DNA from: JACRDV01 sp024860865 [NCBI: Methanobacteriota archaeon]
GTDB lineage: Archaea > JACRDV01
Direction: 5' to 3'
Assembly: GCA_024860865.1 (NCBI GenBank)
Contig: JACRDV010000113.1
Location: forward strand, 1 to 12,787
DNA length: 12,787 bases
Shown here: positions 301-10,033 of the stretch, piece after piece
Numbering within the stretch: the first letter of the stretch is position 1
Layout of the letters: the number at the start of each line of letters is the position of its first letter
Program-made: the position numbers and the translations under genes
Notes under the pieces: generated by a model
The model's database searches: none
What the model was told of the DNA's origin: nothing
The model's input: only the letters and a program-made list of their open reading frames with translations

Positions 301-1803
301 CTACAAGTTGTTGCTGGATTTATTCAACAGCGACAAAAATGTTTCTACAGGTGCGATTAAGATGTCTTTCTCCAGCCCTACATCTTCTTTACTGAGAATT
401 ATGTATCTTTTAATTTGAGGGATTTTCAGCGCATCCCTGAAACTCACATTGCTCCGGTATTTCGTCTCGACCCCCACAAATGATTTGTTTAACCTCAACA
501 CACTGTCTATTTCTCTCCCGCGAGAATCATAATAAAACCACAGGAACGTTCTTACCTCTCGCATGGTGGGTACCTCTTGATTAAGTGCTAAATGAGAGCA
601 AACTATCCCCTCAACTATTTTGCTCAACGATTCCTCATCCTCCAGATTTTTAGTCACAACATCGTTCACGTCCCTTCCACTCAAAGAACTCTCAAGCGCA
701 CAGAATATGAAAGGGTCTTGGAAGTACACCTTCTTTTCCCCTTTGAATTTTATGTCTTTTTTATTGAAGTCGTAGGCATGAAGAACAGTCAAGATGAAAG
801 ATTCCTCCAATAAGTCCAAGTAGTCGATCGTTGTCACATGGGTTATCTCAATTTCCCTGGCAAGCTTTGAGAAACTGTACCTAGTTCCATACTTGTCTAT
901 TATCTCCTTCAATATCTGGCGTGCAAATGTTTCTTGTCTCCCCTGTTTTATCACATCGCCCAATACATTTCGAACGAGCGTTTCGGCCAGCGAGTAGTCA
1001 AGGAGTTCCCGCTTTCCAGCGAATGCTTTTTTTAAATAGGCATTGATGACTGCCGGAAAGCCTCCTGTCATCAAGTAGATCCTGAAAAGGTATTCCAATT
1101 CCTTCTTGAAAGGAATGATTGTATTCACCACACCGTACATTTCATTGACATCTGACTTCATGTCTATGCTGACCTTTTCCAATGCAGCTTTCAAACGTCT
1201 TAAGCCTTTTTGAAATTCTCGTGTTTTAGCGTGGCTTTGTATATAATTTACAGTTTGAAGGACAAATTCTCTAAAGCTCAAAGGTTTCAGGTAATACTCG
1301 TTTCTTTCTAACCCTCTCCCAGGGAGAAGCTCCCCTTTTTTACGCAAAGCCATTCCACTAGAACCCGTTGTTATAATCTTCGCTCTTCTTGTGATTCCTG
1401 AATCCCAGAGGTACTTCAGTTCGAGATTCCAGTCTTTTATAGTTGTTATTTCGTCTAGGAACATGTGAAGTTCTTCGGCCTCTCGATTAGTGTCCAAAAA
1501 ATAATTAATAGCATTCCTCATCTCCCTCCTAGAAGTGAAAAAATCTAGTGAAAGATAGAGGATACGTTTCGGGTTAAAACCTTTGCTGATTAGCTTGTTT
1601 ATCCACTCTTTCAGATACGTCGTCTTGCCAATCTGCCTACATCCTCTCATAACGTAGATGTTCTCCTTGCTTGTCCTGAATTCCCTTCTATCAAAGAAGA
1701 TCAAGCTTTCTTTTGCCTTTGGAAGATGTCTATCGTAAGGCGTGAATTCCTTGCCGTACTTCCACCAAGGATTTTGGTTGATTATTTCGCTAATTTTTAC
1801 CAT
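301..1803 (-). CDS. AAA-family ATPase with DUF4143 C-terminal domain
   Basis: A 500-residue P-loop ATPase of the AAA_14/DUF4143 class, common in archaea and of poorly defined role. The Walker A motif is GCRQIGKTT (54-62), Walker B is HMFLDEIT (113-120), and a sensor-1-like strand is IITTGSSG (143-150). It is followed by the family-typical PGRGLERNEYYLKPLSFREF (161-180). A winged-helix-like segment lies around 305-340. The C-terminal part has EID (431-433) and VETKYR (445-450), the E..D...E-x-K pattern of the restriction-endonuclease-like fold seen in DUF4143. The ATG start lies about 28 bases from a TATA-like box, so the message is probably leaderless. It appears monocistronic and full length. 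G+C looks higher than in the operon to its right, which fits an accessory gene. The family call is firm; the biological role is unknown. Confidence 0.9.
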   Translation of the reverse strand: MVKISEIINQNPWWKYGKEFTPYDRHLPKAKESLIFFDRREFRTSKENIYVMRGCRQIGKTTYLKEWINKLISKGFNPKRILYLSLDFFTSRREMRNAINYFLDTNREAEELHMFLDEITTIKDWNLELKYLWDSGITRRAKIITTGSSGMALRKKGELLPGRGLERNEYYLKPLSFREFVLQTVNYIQSHAKTREFQKGLRRLKAALEKVSIDMKSDVNEMYGVVNTIIPFKKELEYLFRIYLMTGGFPAVINAYLKKAFAGKRELLDYSLAETLVRNVLGDVIKQGRQETFARQILKEIIDKYGTRYSFSKLAREIEITHVTTIDYLDLLEESFILTVLHAYDFNKKDIKFKGEKKVYFQDPFIFCALESSLSGRDVNDVVTKNLEDEESLSKIVEGIVCSHLALNQEVPTMREVRTFLWFYYDSRGREIDSVLRLNKSFVGVETKYRSNVSFRDALKIPQIKRYIILSKEDVGLEKDILIAPVETFLSLLNKSSNNL

Positions 1804-2068: not shown

Positions 2069-2878
2069 TTAAATCAAGAGTTTATTCATACTTCCGCTCA
2101 CATAACCCTCAAGGTCTAAAGTAACAAAAAGAAAACCAATTTTCCTGAAGTGTTCTATTATTTGCAGTGTAAAGCTAAGAAGTATTGGAAAATCATCCTT
2201 TGGCACTTCAATTCGAGCTATTTTATCACTATGATATCTCACTCTGACCTGTTTAATTCCCAAATTCCGGATGAAGTTCTCTGCTGAATTTATCATATCA
2301 AGTTTTTCTTGCGTTATCTTTTCATAATAGGGTACTCTAGAAGCAAGACATGCCATCGATGGTTTGTTCCAATTGCTTAAACCAAAAAACCTTGCTAATT
2401 CTCGAGCTTCTTCTTTATTTATCTCAGCTAACGCCAATGGACTTACAACCCCATTTTTTCTTGCAGCAATTATTCCTGGCCTATGGTCAGAAAGATCAGA
2501 AGCATTAGTTCCATCCAAAATAGCGTGAGCGCCTTCTTTAGCAGCGATTTCTTTTAGTTTAGCAAATAATTCTGTCTTGCAATAGTAGCACCTGTCAGCT
2601 GGATTAGAGCTGAAATTTTCATTTTCTAATTCCGAAGTATGTATTAACATATGATTTATGCCAATTTCTTTCGCCATTTGCTCAGCAATTTTCACTTCAA
2701 TATCCGGATAAGTGGGAGAAACAGCAGTAACAGCTATAGCATCGCCTTCTAAAGCCTCATGTGCAAGTTTCGCAACCAAACTGCTATCAACACCACCTGA
2801 AAAAGCTATTATTACTTTTTTTGCGTTTCTTATGATTTTTTTAGCTTCTTCAGCTTTTGATAATATATTATTGCTCAT
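2069..2878 (-). CDS. larE: LarE-family ATP-dependent sulfurtransferase
   Basis: A PP-loop ATP pyrophosphatase of the LarE family (about 270 residues, normal length). LarE activates the carboxylates of pyridinium bis-carboxylate mononucleotide by adenylation and puts sulfur into them during nickel-pincer nucleotide synthesis. Visible motifs are the PP-loop SGGVDSS (27-33), NPADRCYYCKTELF (92-105), LDGTNASDLSDHRPG (121-135), PSMACLASRVPYYEKIT (173-189) and a typical C-terminal end, TLDLEGYVSGSM. C177 sits where the catalytic cysteine is expected. C97 and C100 give a three-cysteine set, as in iron-sulfur LarE forms (inference). The ATG at 2878 was chosen because an earlier in-frame start at 2944 would run into the upstream gene; the gap to that gene is 10 bases. 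No LarB or LarC is in the window, so the exact substrate is inferred from family only. Confidence 0.88.
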   Translation of the reverse strand: MSNNILSKAEEAKKIIRNAKKVIIAFSGGVDSSLVAKLAHEALEGDAIAVTAVSPTYPDIEVKIAEQMAKEIGINHMLIHTSELENENFSSNPADRCYYCKTELFAKLKEIAAKEGAHAILDGTNASDLSDHRPGIIAARKNGVVSPLALAEINKEEARELARFFGLSNWNKPSMACLASRVPYYEKITQEKLDMINSAENFIRNLGIKQVRVRYHSDKIARIEVPKDDFPILLSFTLQIIEHFRKIGFLFVTLDLEGYVSGSMNKLLI

Positions 2879-2888
2879 AACATTCAAC

Positions 2889-3929
2889 CTAGGCTGGCAA
2901 TGGTTTGGTGAGTAACCTGGCAATGTAAAACCCATTTGTAGCAATTTTTTTAACTTCCAATATTATTTCTGGACATTCTTTCTCAAATTTTTTGAATTCG
3001 TTAATTAGTTCTTGGTATTTATTAATTGCAATTTTAGCTAATTCTTTATCAGCGTTCTTAAAAGCATCGAAAGCATCCGAGATAATTTCTAAAGAAAGTT
3101 TATGGACTCTAGATAGTTGCTCTGGCATTTTTTTATCTTTAACCAGAACAATAAGCGAGTTGAATCCATCTAGCATCCTTGAAATATCTAAGGATAAACC
3201 GAGGAGAATTAAACCAAAAGTTGCATCTTCTTTTCTTTCAGTATTTATAATAAAATTTATAGCGTTTTTATTTGCTTCTTTAAGTTCAACCTGCAGATCT
3301 TGTGCAATTTTCCCATCAAACATATTTTTGTACGTCTCAATAAATTTTGAGAAAATTCCATTTAATTTATTAAATCCCTCCTCAAATATTGGTCTTGTTG
3401 GGAGATTTCTTATTTTTTGAAAAATCATATAACCGGTTATTTGTTCAGCAGACTTTGTTGGAGCTGATAAAGGATCTGGCGGCCCCTCAAGTAAAATAGG
3501 GCAAACTTTAGTCATACAATCTTCGCAGCTTCCGGATGCGCAATCCGCGCCAGAATTCCTGCAATATGTGCAAATGGTAGCAGGCCATATCACTTTTGAA
3601 ACTAATCTTATAGTTTCTTGAGCATCTTCTTTGTCCCTAGCTCTCCTCACATTTATTTTTCCATTCTGGAATAGTATTATAGTTTTTTCATCGTAATCGA
3701 TTTTTGCCATTCCTAATCGCTGAGAACAACGAACCGAATCAAAAAGCGGGTTATCCTCCAAGAAGGTGCAAAGCACAGAAGGATCAAAAAATCTATACTT
3801 ATATCTAGTATCAAATTTATATTCAGGCAATCGAACTATTGCTTCGGCCATTATTTTTCCACCTTCAGAAATACAAGGATAAAAATAAGCAATTCCTTTT
3901 TCAGTAACAACTTTAGTTTTGGCTTCCAA
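2889..3929 (-). CDS. Unrecognised six-cysteine protein with PhoU-like helical C-terminus
   Basis: No precise family is recognised. Residues about 82-112 (ILFQNGKINVRRARDKEDA and on) resemble a TBP-like strand-helix unit. A tight cysteine cluster follows, with C120, C123, C130, C135, C138 and C143 (C-x2-C-x6-C-x4-C-x2-C-x4-C), suited to an Fe-S cluster or zinc. The rest, about 185-320, is helical and recalls PhoU: VHKLSLEIISDAFDAFKNADKELAKIAINKYQELINEF (276-313) has the spacing of a PhoU repeat. It sits between sufS (51-base gap) and larE (10-base gap) on the same strand, so a role in sulfur or metal transfer is a reasonable inference. The start is uncertain: TTG at 3929, or ATG at 3851, which has a good SD (GAAGGTGG) 7 bases upstream and would give 320 residues. 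Confidence 0.75.
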   Translation of the reverse strand: MEAKTKVVTEKGIAYFYPCISEGGKIMAEAIVRLPEYKFDTRYKYRFFDPSVLCTFLEDNPLFDSVRCSQRLGMAKIDYDEKTIILFQNGKINVRRARDKEDAQETIRLVSKVIWPATICTYCRNSGADCASGSCEDCMTKVCPILLEGPPDPLSAPTKSAEQITGYMIFQKIRNLPTRPIFEEGFNKLNGIFSKFIETYKNMFDGKIAQDLQVELKEANKNAINFIINTERKEDATFGLILLGLSLDISRMLDGFNSLIVLVKDKKMPEQLSRVHKLSLEIISDAFDAFKNADKELAKIAINKYQELINEFKKFEKECPEIILEVKKIATNGFYIARLLTKPLPA

Positions 3930-3980
3930 TCCAATACCACTTAATAATTTTTAATTTGTTAATTGCAAAATTATTATCAA

Positions 3981-5186
3981 TCAAATTTTAGATATTTCTT
4001 TAATTGCGTCAATAAATTTTTTAACCTCTTCTATTGTGTTATAAATATATAACGAGGCTCTAGCAGTTCCATTAGGTCTTTTTAAAATTTCTTTCATCAA
4101 GGGTAAGGCACAATGATGCCCCGAACGAATCATTATATTAGCTATATTGTCCAAAACTAAAGCCACATCGTGGGGATTAAGATTAGGAATATTAAATGAA
4201 ATTATTCCAACTTTATTTTCTGCTGGCCCATAAACTTCTACATTATCTATCTCGCTTAATCCCTTGAAAGCCAAGTTTGAAAGCTTGTTTTCATGCTCCA
4301 GCACATTTTCCATACCAATTTTTGTCAAATAATCTACTGCAGCACCTAATCCGATTGCAGGCGCTATAGGAGGCGTACCCGCTTCAAATCGCTCTGGAGA
4401 GCGAGTTAATTTATAACTATCAATAGAAACATCCTCTATCGTACCGCCTCCGAAAGTGAAAGGTTCAACATCGTTTAGGTGTTCTTCTTTAATATAAAGA
4501 ACTCCAACTCCAGTTGGACCAAGCATTTTATGTCCTGACAAAGCCATGAAATCGCAATCCATTTTTTTAACATTTATTGGGATATGTGGAACTGACTGTG
4601 CCCCATCGATTAAACATAGCGCTCCAAAATTGTGGGAAATTTTTATCATTTCCTCCACTGGAACAACATTTCCCAAGACATTAGATACATGTGTTACAGC
4701 AACTAACTTCGTTTTATTTGAGATTAATTTTTCAAAATCAGCTATTTCTATTGTTCCATCTGGTTTAGGTTTCAATAACTTTATAATAAAACCTTTTTTT
4801 CTTAACCTTAACCAAGGAATAAAATTTGAATGATGCTCTAAATAAGTAGTTATAATTTCATTGCGATTGCGATTATCTAGTTCAATAGAATTTGCGATAA
4901 AGTTAATTGATTCAGTAGTATTTTTTGTAAATATTATTTCTCTCTCAGAATTCGCGCCGATAAAATCAGCTACTTTAAAATGGGCCAATTCATATTTTTC
5001 GCTCGCTTCCTGAGAAAGACGATGCACGCCTCTATGAACATTTGCTCGGTACTCTAGATAATACCTGCTTATTTCCTCTATAACTTGCCTCGGAGTTAAA
5101 CTAGAGGCAGCGCTGTCCATGTAAATAACTTTTGAAACTATTGGAAAATCTTCTCGCAGTTTTTCAAAGTCTAATTTTATCACCAA
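3981..5186 (-). CDS. sufS: SufS/CsdA-type cysteine desulfurase
   Basis: A PLP-dependent group II cysteine desulfurase, which takes sulfur from cysteine as an enzyme persulfide and hands it to acceptors. At about 401 residues it is normal length. Visible motifs are YMDSAASSLTP (22-32), RANVHRGVHRLS (47-58), the cofactor-stacking EHHSN (117-121), the PLP-binding D194 in IDGAQSVPH, Schiff-base K220 in SGHKMLGPTGVGVLY, RFEAGTPP (266-273), and catalytic C359 in RSGHHCALPLM, the SufS-type loop. All key residues are present. The first codon is not ATG: TTG at 5186 is followed at once by GTG at 5183, and either could start. It is the first gene of an apparent sufS-orf-larE operon and is divergent from moaE. 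No SufBCD is in the window, so the acceptor may be LarE, MoaD or tRNA enzymes (inference). Confidence 0.92.
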   Translation of the reverse strand: MVIKLDFEKLREDFPIVSKVIYMDSAASSLTPRQVIEEISRYYLEYRANVHRGVHRLSQEASEKYELAHFKVADFIGANSEREIIFTKNTTESINFIANSIELDNRNRNEIITTYLEHHSNFIPWLRLRKKGFIIKLLKPKPDGTIEIADFEKLISNKTKLVAVTHVSNVLGNVVPVEEMIKISHNFGALCLIDGAQSVPHIPINVKKMDCDFMALSGHKMLGPTGVGVLYIKEEHLNDVEPFTFGGGTIEDVSIDSYKLTRSPERFEAGTPPIAPAIGLGAAVDYLTKIGMENVLEHENKLSNLAFKGLSEIDNVEVYGPAENKVGIISFNIPNLNPHDVALVLDNIANIMIRSGHHCALPLMKEILKRPNGTARASLYIYNTIEEVKKFIDAIKEISKI

Positions 5187-5211
5187 AACTTTTAATTCGT
5201 AATTTCTACAT

Positions 5212-5224
5212 TTGAGATATATCT
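5212..5224 (-). promoter_or_regulatory. Candidate TATA box of the sufS operon
   Basis: On the minus strand ATAGATATATCTC lies about 30-35 bases upstream of the TTG/GTG start of the cysteine desulfurase, giving a very short leader. It faces the moaE promoter, so both are packed into about 120 bases. Confidence 0.35.
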
Positions 5225-5254
5225 ATGTTTATGGGTAAACAAATCTTCCATCGG

Positions 5255-5267
5255 TAAATTTAAATTT
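5255..5267 (+). promoter_or_regulatory. Candidate TATA box of moaE
   Basis: TAAATTTAAATTT is centred about 47 bases before the ATG at 5308. A start site about 26 bases downstream would leave a leader of about 20 bases holding the SD at 5297-5303 (GAGGTGA). Confidence 0.45.
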
Positions 5268-5307
5268 GCTCTCATTTAAATCAAAAAATAGATTTCGAGG
5301 TGAAACT

Positions 5308-5733
5308 ATGGAAAAAAAAGGGATTGCTGAAAAATTACCCTCCATTGACTCTATTTTTGCTGATATTATCTCGAAGCCAAAAAGCAAAGAAGCTGGCTGT
5401 GCAGCAATTTTTATTGGATTTGTCAGAGGAAAAACAGAGAAGGGAAGTTCTGTAGAACGTCTTTATTTTGAGTCCTATGAGAAAAAGGCCTTAGAAGCTT
5501 TTGACTCAATAATACAGTCTCTTGAAAATAAAGAGGGAATTGTTGATGTAAGAATTTACCATAGAATTGGTGACTTAAAGGTTGGAGACCCGATTGTAAT
5601 CATAAGCGTTGCTGGTGGACACAGAGAACAAGTTTTTCCGGTGTTAGCTGAAGCAGTTGAACGAATGAAAAGCGAGGCTACTATTTGGAAGAAAGAATTT
5701 ACAGCTGGCGAGAGTTATTGGGTTAAGCACTAG
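5308..5733 (+). CDS. moaE: Molybdopterin synthase catalytic subunit MoaE
   Basis: The large subunit of molybdopterin synthase (141 residues, normal length). With thiocarboxylated MoaD it puts the dithiolene sulfurs into precursor Z during Mo/W cofactor synthesis. Visible motifs are AGCAAIFIGFVRG (29-41), the LYFESYEKKA segment (52-61), HRIGDLKVGDPIVIISVAGGHR (85-106), and MKSEATIWKKE (120-130). K121 and K128 are seven residues apart, matching the catalytic lysine pair of E. coli MoaE. The ATG at 5308 has a strong SD (GAGGTGA, 5297-5303); the reading frame stays open back to a TTG at 5266, but that lies next to the TATA-like box. No moaD is adjacent. It is divergent from the cysteine desulfurase operon, which could supply the sulfur for MoaD. 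Confidence 0.93.
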   Translation: MEKKGIAEKLPSIDSIFADIISKPKSKEAGCAAIFIGFVRGKTEKGSSVERLYFESYEKKALEAFDSIIQSLENKEGIVDVRIYHRIGDLKVGDPIVIISVAGGHREQVFPVLAEAVERMKSEATIWKKEFTAGESYWVKH

Positions 5734-9183: not shown

Positions 9184-9612
9184 CTACTTGCTCTTAAGTT
9201 GTTCAATAAATTTTCCTATAGAAAAGATAAACCTTTCAAAATCGCGCACTCTTAAGTGGTATTGGTAAATTTCCTCAGGAGTGACTCCTCGATAAACGTG
9301 AGCTAAACTTCGTCGAAATTCGATCATCCATTTACTTTCTTTAAAGAGTTCTGTTGAAATAACTCCCGCTCCTTTAAGTCTTTCTAAAACTTGTGTATAG
9401 GTTTCTGCTTTTTCTAATTGCAAAGAAGCAATTAAATGTTTTCCAATATCAATTACATCCTCGACCGCCTCGTAAAGAAAATTCTTAATTGCTGCAAACC
9501 TTTCAGGATTTTTTCTTAAGGTTTCAGGCGAATCTACTTTATATTCCTTTAAATAGTCAGTGGACTTCTTTAAATGCTCTAATATGCGAGCAACTTTTTC
9601 TCTATCAACCAA
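9184..9612 (-). CDS. hepT: HepT-like HEPN-domain toxin
   Basis: An all-helical HEPN protein of the HepT/DUF86 group (142 residues). Members are RNases paired with a MntA nucleotidyltransferase antitoxin. The RX4HXY active-site motif reads R100-RSLA-H105-V-Y107; R100 and H105 are the catalytic pair. Y107 matches the tyrosine that MntA modifies with AMP in the characterised Shewanella pair. The usual asparagine after the first arginine is replaced by arginine (R101), a mild departure. The start is TTG at 9612 with an SD (AGGTGA) about 8 bases upstream. It overlaps the MntA reading frame by 8 bases, showing translational coupling. The antitoxin gene is interrupted by a stop, so this toxin may be uncontrolled, inactive, or the stop may be an error. 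Confidence 0.85.
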   Translation of the reverse strand: MVDREKVARILEHLKKSTDYLKEYKVDSPETLRKNPERFAAIKNFLYEAVEDVIDIGKHLIASLQLEKAETYTQVLERLKGAGVISTELFKESKWMIEFRRSLAHVYRGVTPEEIYQYHLRVRDFERFIFSIGKFIEQLKSK

Positions 9613-10033
9613 GCTCTTTCACCTTTTTGAAAAAATATTTATCATACTCCTCAATGATGGGCTTAGAAATCCAATAATCTGCCATAACTTCTTCTTCGAA
9701 CTTTATCCTATGCTTTTCATTTTTTATGAAAATAGGAATCCCTTCTTTAATCACTCGAAATTTTAAAGAATCGGATGTTACTTCGTTCAGGAAAACTATG
9801 TCAATTTTATCCGTACGAAATGCAGTAGCGATTTCCCAATATATTTCGGCTTTTTCATCAAGTTAAAGTTTTCTTTCAGTTAAAAGAGCTATGTCTATAT
9901 CGCTTAAAGGGGTTATTCTTCCTTTTACTTGAGAGCCAAAAAGATAAGTAACTTGTATAAATGAAAACTTTTTTGAAGCGTTCTTAAGCTTGATTATATC
10001 TTCTTCAGACATTTTATTGTTATCCTTTAACAT
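9605..10033 (-). pseudogene. mntA: MntA-like nucleotidyltransferase antitoxin with in-frame TAA
   Basis: A minimal nucleotidyltransferase (143 codons) that would modify HepT. The family signature is GSQVKGRITPLSDIDIAL (33-50), with the paired aspartates D45 and D47. The third catalytic aspartate lies in TDKIDIVFL after the break. Codon 57 is TAA (9863-9865), between ERKL and LDEKAEIYWE; the frame is otherwise open and well conserved to TGA at 9605-9607. The lesion is a single substitution, not a frameshift. The start could be ATG at 10033 or ATG at 10012; the second fits a TATA-like box at 10047-10060 and an AAAGGAT SD. Possible explanations are true decay, sequencing error or population variation; read-through of TAA is unlikely. 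Confidence 0.82.

What the first reader, a model, noticed from the sequence alone, without database searches (positions are those of the whole stretch)
2069..5733. Sulfur-transfer gene group built round a six-cysteine protein of unknown role
sufS, an unrecognised protein and larE are tightly packed in one operon, with moaE divergent from the same spacer. Three of four genes are established sulfur-handling enzymes. The fourth has six clustered cysteines (120-143) and a PhoU-like helical part, and is placed between persulfide donor and sulfur user. It could be a sulfur or metal carrier, or an Fe-S scaffold feeding LarE. LarB, LarC and MoaD are absent here, so the pathway may differ from known nickel-pincer synthesis.
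Basis: partly seen in the sequence, partly recalled or inferred. Interest (0 to 1): 0.75.

Follow-up and report, generated by a model that had tools for sequence, protein, structure and literature searches.

The report
Archaeal sulfur-relay protein with TBP-like fold
A protein of unknown function between two sulfur-handling genes belongs to a widespread, unnamed archaeal family with a fold like the TATA-binding protein, often found beside or fused to enzymes that move sulfur, so it is probably a sulfur carrier or docking part.

Summary
The gene group is real: sufS, a 346-aa protein and larE on the minus strand, moaE divergent. The key cysteines are not those it named: of 71 homologous domains 68 keep C19, 54 each C54 and C68; the 120-143 cluster recurs only in Hadesarchaea-type relatives (5 of 6 Cys, 9 of 9). 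The domain occurs beside cysteine desulfurases, IscU and ThiI- or TtuA-like enzymes, fused to PAPS-reductase-like proteins, and in Methanobacteriaceae fused to LarE in a ycaO-tfuA-larE row. 27 of 41 loci have such a gene within 3 kb or fused, against 23 of 391 control positions. LarA, LarB, LarC and MoaD-type matches lie elsewhere in the window's genome, so ordinary nickel-pincer synthesis is likely; no IscU was found (genome 92% complete). Best explanation: the protein takes sulfur from SufS and hands it to a three-cysteine LarE. Function is inferred, not shown. The LarE fusion beside YcaO-TfuA makes the sulfur supply for McrA thioamidation testable.

The parts
3981..5186 (-). sufS, cysteine desulfurase (401 aa); Cys359 at the expected catalytic place (recalled, not tested)
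   Evidence: NCBIfam TIGR01979 492.6 bits, cut-off 475.1; Pfam Aminotran_5; Cys positions
2889..3929 (-). 346-aa protein: TBP-like domain, six-Cys segment, PhoU-like helical bundle (TTG start)
3570..3902 (-). TBP-like domain (residues 10-120)
   Evidence: AF2 model, VIA-align Z 9.1, rmsd 2.4, 85 aligned to M. jannaschii TBP 2z8u; homologs
3873..3875 (-). codon of C19, kept in 68 of 71 domains (67 in the alignment, one more by eye)
3768..3770 (-). codon of C54, kept in 54 of 71
3726..3728 (-). codon of C68, kept in 54 of 71
3501..3572 (-). six-Cys segment C-x2-C-x6-C-x4-C-x2-C-x4-C (120-143); the first five with identical spacing in 9 of 9 Hadesarchaea-type relatives (families f15 and f30)
   Evidence: 8 loci; L101
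2895..3401 (-). PhoU-like helical bundle (residues 177-345)
   Evidence: VIA-align Z 15.5, rmsd 2.7, 169 aligned to PhoU 4q25; Pfam PF01895 23.5 bits = cut-off
2069..2878 (-). larE, plain length (269 aa), with three cysteines C97, C100, C177 at positions shared with the methanobacterial LarE
   Evidence: (TIGR00268)
5308..5733 (+). moaE, divergent from sufS
5187..5307 (.). divergent spacer between sufS and moaE

Best explanation
The protein is a sulfur-relay adaptor. Its TBP-like domain docks on the cysteine desulfurase SufS and takes a sulfane sulfur on C19, with C54 and C68 as further sulfur or metal ligands. It passes the sulfur to the neighbouring LarE, a three-cysteine LarE expected to carry a [4Fe-4S] cluster, which uses it to thiolate the nickel-pincer precursor made by LarB; LarC and LarA, encoded elsewhere in the genome, complete and use the cofactor. 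The 120-143 cysteines are probably a structural metal or Fe-S site, and the PhoU-like bundle an extra docking or dimer module. Shown: gene order, folds by prediction, conserved cysteines, recurrent link to sulfur genes, presence of LarA, LarB and LarC, no IscU detected. Inferred: docking, persulfide on C19, direction of transfer, roles of the other cysteines and of the bundle.
For: C19 kept in 68 of 71 domains. Sulfur-moving gene within 3 kb or fused in 27 of 41 loci (cysteine desulfurase in 19 of 41) against 23 of 391 control positions (8 of 391); by my hand count this is 12 of 17 family codes. Representative neighbours confirmed by Pfam as ThiF, class-V aminotransferase, NifU_N, ThiI, PP-loop/TtuA, YcaO, TfuA. 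The domain is fused to LarE (30 of 30 short loci) and to PAPS-reductase-like proteins (4 loci; Pfam in 3 of 3 scanned); a weakly matching relative sits at the C-terminus of ThiF proteins. The window domain and the LarE-fused domains fall in different parts of the tree, so the link to LarE may have arisen twice. No NifU_N/IscU match in the window's genome. LarA, LarB, LarC present. Three-Cys LarE of Thermotoga maritima takes sulfane sulfur from IscS, the authors propose onto its [4Fe-4S] cluster (PMC9283937, passages read); the LarE part of the fusion model matches the [4Fe-4S] LarE 8cnz best.
Against: IscS can load Thermotoga LarE directly, with no carrier (PMC9283937). 14 of 41 loci have no recognised sulfur gene within 3 kb and no fusion, among them 6 of 6 f38 proteins with an N-terminal FeS domain; 9 of 41 loci had a 3-kb flank cut short. 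The LarE-fused domain of family f3 has no C19 in 3 of 3. C54 and C68 are missing in 17 of 71 each. The window's gene order is known from one genome. In 7 of 7 plain LarE loci from other genomes the domain was not within about 1.5 kb. The model is weak round C19 (mean pLDDT 51 for residues 11-20) and I could not measure distances between the cysteines. The genome is 92% complete, so a missing IscU is not certain.
Confidence: 0.5

Rival explanations
1. Fe-S scaffold or carrier: the protein assembles or carries a cluster on C19/C54/C68 or on the 120-143 cysteines and loads the [4Fe-4S] cluster of LarE, standing in for IscU.
For: IscU not found in this genome; the gene follows sufS, as iscU follows iscS in other loci; 5 of 6 clustered cysteines with the same spacing in 9 of 9 Hadesarchaea-type relatives; several homologs carry extra FeS or ferredoxin domains.
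Against: In Hadesarchaea-type loci and in L081-L083 the protein AND IscU lie in one row, so it does not replace IscU there; the 120-143 cluster is missing outside the Hadesarchaea-type relatives among those read; C19 alone is kept in the divergent members.
Confidence: 0.22
2. Nucleic-acid-binding domain: the TBP-like part binds tRNA or DNA, guiding thiolases to tRNA or acting as a sulfur- or redox-sensing regulator.
For: TBP fold; ThiI- and TtuA-like neighbours, families that act on tRNA (recalled); the PAPS-reductase-like fusion also has a PUA domain; HTH genes lie next to or near it in some Hadesarchaea-type rows and in L095.
Against: Fused to LarE-like proteins and beside IscS, IscU, SufS and TfuA; a near-invariant cysteine is not needed for nucleic-acid binding.
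Confidence: 0.15
3. Protein-docking domain without chemistry of its own: it only holds desulfurase and acceptor together.
For: Many fusions and adjacent pairs; family f3 fusions lack C19 in 3 of 3.
Against: C19 kept in 68 of 71 across distant architectures.
Confidence: 0.1

Closest known systems
TATA-binding protein (TBP, PF00352)
   Same: one TBP half-fold, Z about 9; weak sequence match
   Different: single copy, conserved P-C motif, fused to or beside sulfur enzymes; not a transcription factor by context
Single-domain TBP-like archaeal proteins (Brindefalk and co-workers, 2013; recalled, paper not held)
   Same: single TBP domain in archaea, function unknown (recalled)
   Different: here tied to sulfur transfer by neighbours, fusions and a conserved cysteine
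SufE / SufU / IscU sulfur acceptors
   Same: expected place in the relay, next to the desulfurase
   Different: different predicted fold (IscU and SufE folds recalled); coexists with IscU in some rows
[4Fe-4S]-dependent LarE (PMC9283937; PDB 8cnz)
   Same: window LarE and the fused LarE keep three cysteines at shared positions
   Different: the fused form ends in a TBP-like domain and mostly lies beside tfuA
PRK13795 (PAPS-reductase-like proteins, NCBIfam NF010368)
   Same: carry the same domain near their C-terminus
   Different: no LarE part; PUA and ferredoxin-like domains added
ycaO-tfuA loci with sulfur genes (PMC5589413, passages read)
   Same: that paper already reports thiF, sufS, moaD, moaE and moeB near ycaO-tfuA in several methanogens
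   Different: LarE is not named in its main text (0 occurrences) and the TBP-like domain is not in the passages read; its figures were not seen

Membership tests
TBP fold | TBP half-fold topology (strand-helix-four strands-helix) | tested here: met
   AF2 model, Z 9.1 to 2z8u, rmsd 2.4, 85 aligned; TBPs fill ranks 10-40. Middling Z, and Foldseek E only 0.27 at best for TBP, but backed by the sub-threshold sequence match
TBP transcription factor | two tandem TBP repeats, match over Pfam cut-off | tested here: not met
   one repeat in the model; 13.6 bits against 22.9
PhoU | PhoU helical bundle | tested here: met
   Z 15.5 to 4q25 over 177-345; Pfam exactly at cut-off
PhoU phosphate regulator | full-length PhoU with phosphate-transport context | tested here: not met
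   NCBIfam phoU_full 21.4 bits against 130.25; no transport family among the ten window proteins scanned
IscU/NifU_N scaffold | NifU_N domain | tested here: not met
   no Pfam NifU_N match in the protein at E up to 1; none in the genome
[4Fe-4S]-type LarE (window LarE) | LarE family match and three cysteines | tested here: met
   C97, C100, C177, aligned with the fused LarE
[4Fe-4S]-type LarE (window LarE) | bound [4Fe-4S] cluster | not testable with these tools
   needs the protein
Nickel-pincer pathway in this genome | LarA, LarB, LarC, LarE all present | tested here: met
   LarA (Lar_N) G000:C117, LarB G000:C42, LarC G000:C9 (cut by a contig end), LarE in the window
Sulfur-relay protein | accepts persulfide sulfur and passes it on | not testable with these tools
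   inferred only

The most novel reading that the evidence does not exclude
The TBP-like domain with the P-C motif is a general archaeal sulfur-relay module serving several acceptors (LarE, ThiI-like, TtuA-like, ThiF, PAPS-reductase-like). In Methanobacteriaceae its fusion to LarE beside ycaO and tfuA is the missing sulfur donor for the thioglycine of methyl-coenzyme M reductase.
Probability: 0.3. Interest if true: 0.85.

Novelty: new variant of a known kind. Interest (0 to 1): 0.63.

Why it matters
How archaeal cysteine desulfurases hand sulfur to their users is poorly understood (PMC7585200 says so of the archaeal ISC parts, passages and one section read). A candidate carrier with one near-invariant cysteine can be tested directly. 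The 2017 thioamidation paper (PMC5589413, passages read) discusses an external sulfide equivalent and possible sulfurtransferase partners for YcaO-TfuA without naming the donor; a LarE fusion in the same gene row is a concrete candidate.

Tried and rejected
Six clustered cysteines as the family's hallmark: rejected. Missing lar genes as a sign of a new pathway: rejected. Transcription factor TBP: rejected on single repeat and context. Chance clustering: unlikely, with these cautions: I chose the sulfur classes and their reference sequences after seeing neighbourhoods; the 391 control positions overlap and come from 18 of 20 control loci (two were too short to give any), of which 2 held any such gene; hits within one family are not independent; 9 of 41 hit loci had a flank cut short. 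A first neighbour count with a greedy gene picker hid desulfurases behind antisense frames (seen in L068) and was replaced. Of 65 matches I fetched 40 stretches for the neighbourhood count and added the window; the other 24 were 10 methanobacterial LarE fusions (most of them seen as short loci), 2 weak second hits and 12 others not examined. Alignment misses: L101 shows a gap at C19, but its sequence has the P-C motif, so I count 68 of 71.

Literature: TfuA with LarE (two hits, both only the surname Laremore; as whole words none), YcaO with LarE as whole words (none with both), TBP-like with cysteine desulfurase (none), TBP domain (listings only), wider sulfur and methanogen terms (listings). 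None of the listings or passages seen makes this link; only open-licence PubMed Central papers are held and most listed papers were not opened. Not done: distances between cysteines in the models, SufE search, a bacterial survey, a fold search in the viral library, VIA-align of the LarE-fusion model, a search of named Methanosarcina genomes.

Full report
The window is a whole 12,787-base contig of an archaeal genome of 1.54 Mb in 160 contigs, 92% complete, the only genome held of its phylum (the 60 relatives share only the domain). At the stated place lie sufS, a 346-aa protein and larE on the minus strand and moaE divergent.

The middle protein. Pfam gives PhoU at cut-off and TBP below it; NCBIfam gives weak PhoU and PRK13795. 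The AlphaFold2 model (15 sequences, pLDDT 75.8, pTM 0.72) has a TBP half-fold at 10-120 (Z 9.1 to M. jannaschii TBP) and a PhoU-like bundle at 177-345 (Z 15.5 to PhoU 4q25). Foldseek alone gave no match with E up to 0.001, though PhoU and TBP were its first two; so the fold claim rests on VIA-align plus sequence. Residues 1-13, 36-38, 143-168 and 343-346 have pLDDT under 50, and the stretch round C19 is weak (mean 51 for 11-20).

Homologs. A plain search found 4 of 60 relatives. Profiles found the domain in 52 of 151 genomes of the phylum of G045 at E up to 0.001 and in 56 of 394 archaeal genomes, the window's own included, at E up to 1e-5. The one scan of named genomes gave 14 loci: four titled Hadesarchaea, two 'uncultured archaeon', eight of Methanobacteriaceae (family of two candidate genera looked up). 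Locus L117 (Methanobrevibacter filiformis) gives the same protein as L012, which ties family code f42 to that group. I call families f15 and f30 'Hadesarchaea-type'; f30 shares proteins with records so titled, f15 only with an 'uncultured archaeon'.

Cysteines. In 71 domains aligned to the profile, C19 is kept in 67, C54 in 54, C68 in 54. Of the four gaps at C19, L101 has the motif when read by eye, and three LarE fusions of family f3 (L090, L096, L100) truly lack it: 68 of 71. Because the profile contains the motif, hits are biased to having it; but divergent members that lack C54 and C68 still keep C19. The 120-143 cysteines: five of six with identical spacing in 9 of 9 Hadesarchaea-type relatives, the sixth only in the window.

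Neighbourhoods. Forty stretches and the window were compared with reference sequences for cysteine desulfurase, IscU, PP-loop thiolases, TfuA and YcaO. 27 of 41 loci have one within 3 kb or fused, 19 of 41 a cysteine desulfurase; control stretches gave 23 and 8 of 391 positions. Arrangements seen: ThiF, IscS, IscU, domain, HTH, ThiI-like in full in L064 and in parts in the other Hadesarchaea-type loci; IscS-IscU-domain (L081-L083); domain facing a SufS-like gene with a ThiI-like gene upstream (L085, L087, L089); SufS-domain (L099); TtuA-like-domain (L092); ThiI-like-domain (L103); PAPS-reductase-like fusions (L091, L093, L094, L102, the last with a desulfurase next to it); SufS-domain-LarE (window). 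In family f38 the protein has an N-terminal FeS domain in 6 of 6 and no sulfur class within 3 kb in 6 of 6, though L075 has a rhodanese-metallo-beta-lactamase protein next door. ThiF proteins (Pfam) near five of these loci end in a weakly matching TBP-like domain with a conserved LCG (E 9e-5 to 0.015), and two small homologs match the C-terminal part of NCBIfam's MoeB/ThiF model.

LarE fusion. In 30 of 30 short loci from the phylum of G045 the domain is the C-terminus of a LarE-like protein of 350-374 aa; TfuA lies in the same short locus in 25 of 30, flanks being about 1.5 kb. All 8 Methanobacteriaceae loci of the named scan show ycaO, tfuA, larE-TBP in this order on one strand, as do 3 of 3 loci of family f3. 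In 7 of 7 such genomes tested YcaO lies 0.7-1.0 kb upstream of the fusion on the same strand, LarB and LarC are present, LarA is not found, and the fusion is the only LarE above cut-off. So the fusion may serve thioamidation, a nickel-pincer cofactor used by an unrecognised enzyme, or both; the presence of LarB and LarC speaks for the second. 99 of 151 genomes of that phylum had no match to the domain; I did not find out whether their LarE lacks it. The fusion model (pLDDT 86, weak at the junction) matches [4Fe-4S] LarE of PDB 8cnz best.

The window's genome has LarA, LarB, LarC (cut by a contig end) and five ThiS/MoaD-type matches elsewhere, and no YcaO or NifU_N match. The simplest reading is an ordinary nickel-pincer pathway whose LarE gets sulfur through the TBP-like protein. 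The domain tree (50 rows, 21 of the 30 LarE-fusion loci left out as near copies) puts the window with Hadesarchaea-type, f38 and L079 proteins (92/84) and the LarE fusions elsewhere (97/84 split); many branches are long and weak, so the claim of two separate links to LarE is tentative.

Mechanism. Three-cysteine LarE of Thermotoga takes sulfane sulfur from IscS, and its authors propose that it lands on the [4Fe-4S] cluster (PMC9283937, passages). The window LarE has the three cysteines. I infer that C19 receives sulfur from SufS and hands it to that cluster. That IscS can do so directly is the main argument that a carrier is not strictly needed.

Judgement. What seems new is a family-wide link between an unnamed TBP-like domain with one near-invariant cysteine and sulfur transfer, and its fusion to LarE in the ycaO-tfuA row. 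PMC5589413 had already noted sulfur genes such as sufS, thiF and moaE near ycaO-tfuA. I saw no paper making either link in searches, within an open-licence library.

Noticed in passing
L110-L117, L090, L096, L100: Gene row ycaO-tfuA-larE with a TBP-like C-terminal domain on LarE; LarB and LarC present but no LarA found in 7 of 7 genomes with this fusion tested.
   Followed up: partly
L064:1603-2652, L067:7238-8284, L085:2571-3572, L087:1699-2700, L089:3147-4229: ThiF-family proteins end in a weakly matching TBP-like domain with a conserved LCG motif.
   Followed up: partly
L090, L096, L100: In family f3 the TBP-like domain of LarE has no C19, and in L096 and L100 no cysteine at all.
   Followed up: partly
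L066:70-1992: A further PAPS-reductase-like fusion with a weak TBP-like match, about 5 kb from the small homolog of the same stretch.
   Followed up: no
L075:4664-6070: Rhodanese plus metallo-beta-lactamase protein beside an FeS-TBP-like protein.
   Followed up: no
window 9184-9612 and 9863-10033: HepT-like RNase gene with, upstream on the same strand, a 56-aa frame that reads like the start of a nucleotidyltransferase, shorter than I would expect of a partner (by eye).
   Followed up: no
window 301-1803: AAA_14/DUF4143 ATPase, no evident tie to the sulfur group.
   Followed up: no
G000:C130:9979-10692: A PP-loop match and a ThiS/MoaD-type match lie next to each other, perhaps a tRNA thiolase and its sulfur carrier.
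   Followed up: no
L126: IscS, IscU and a plain LarE in one row, with no TBP-like domain within the short locus.
   Followed up: no
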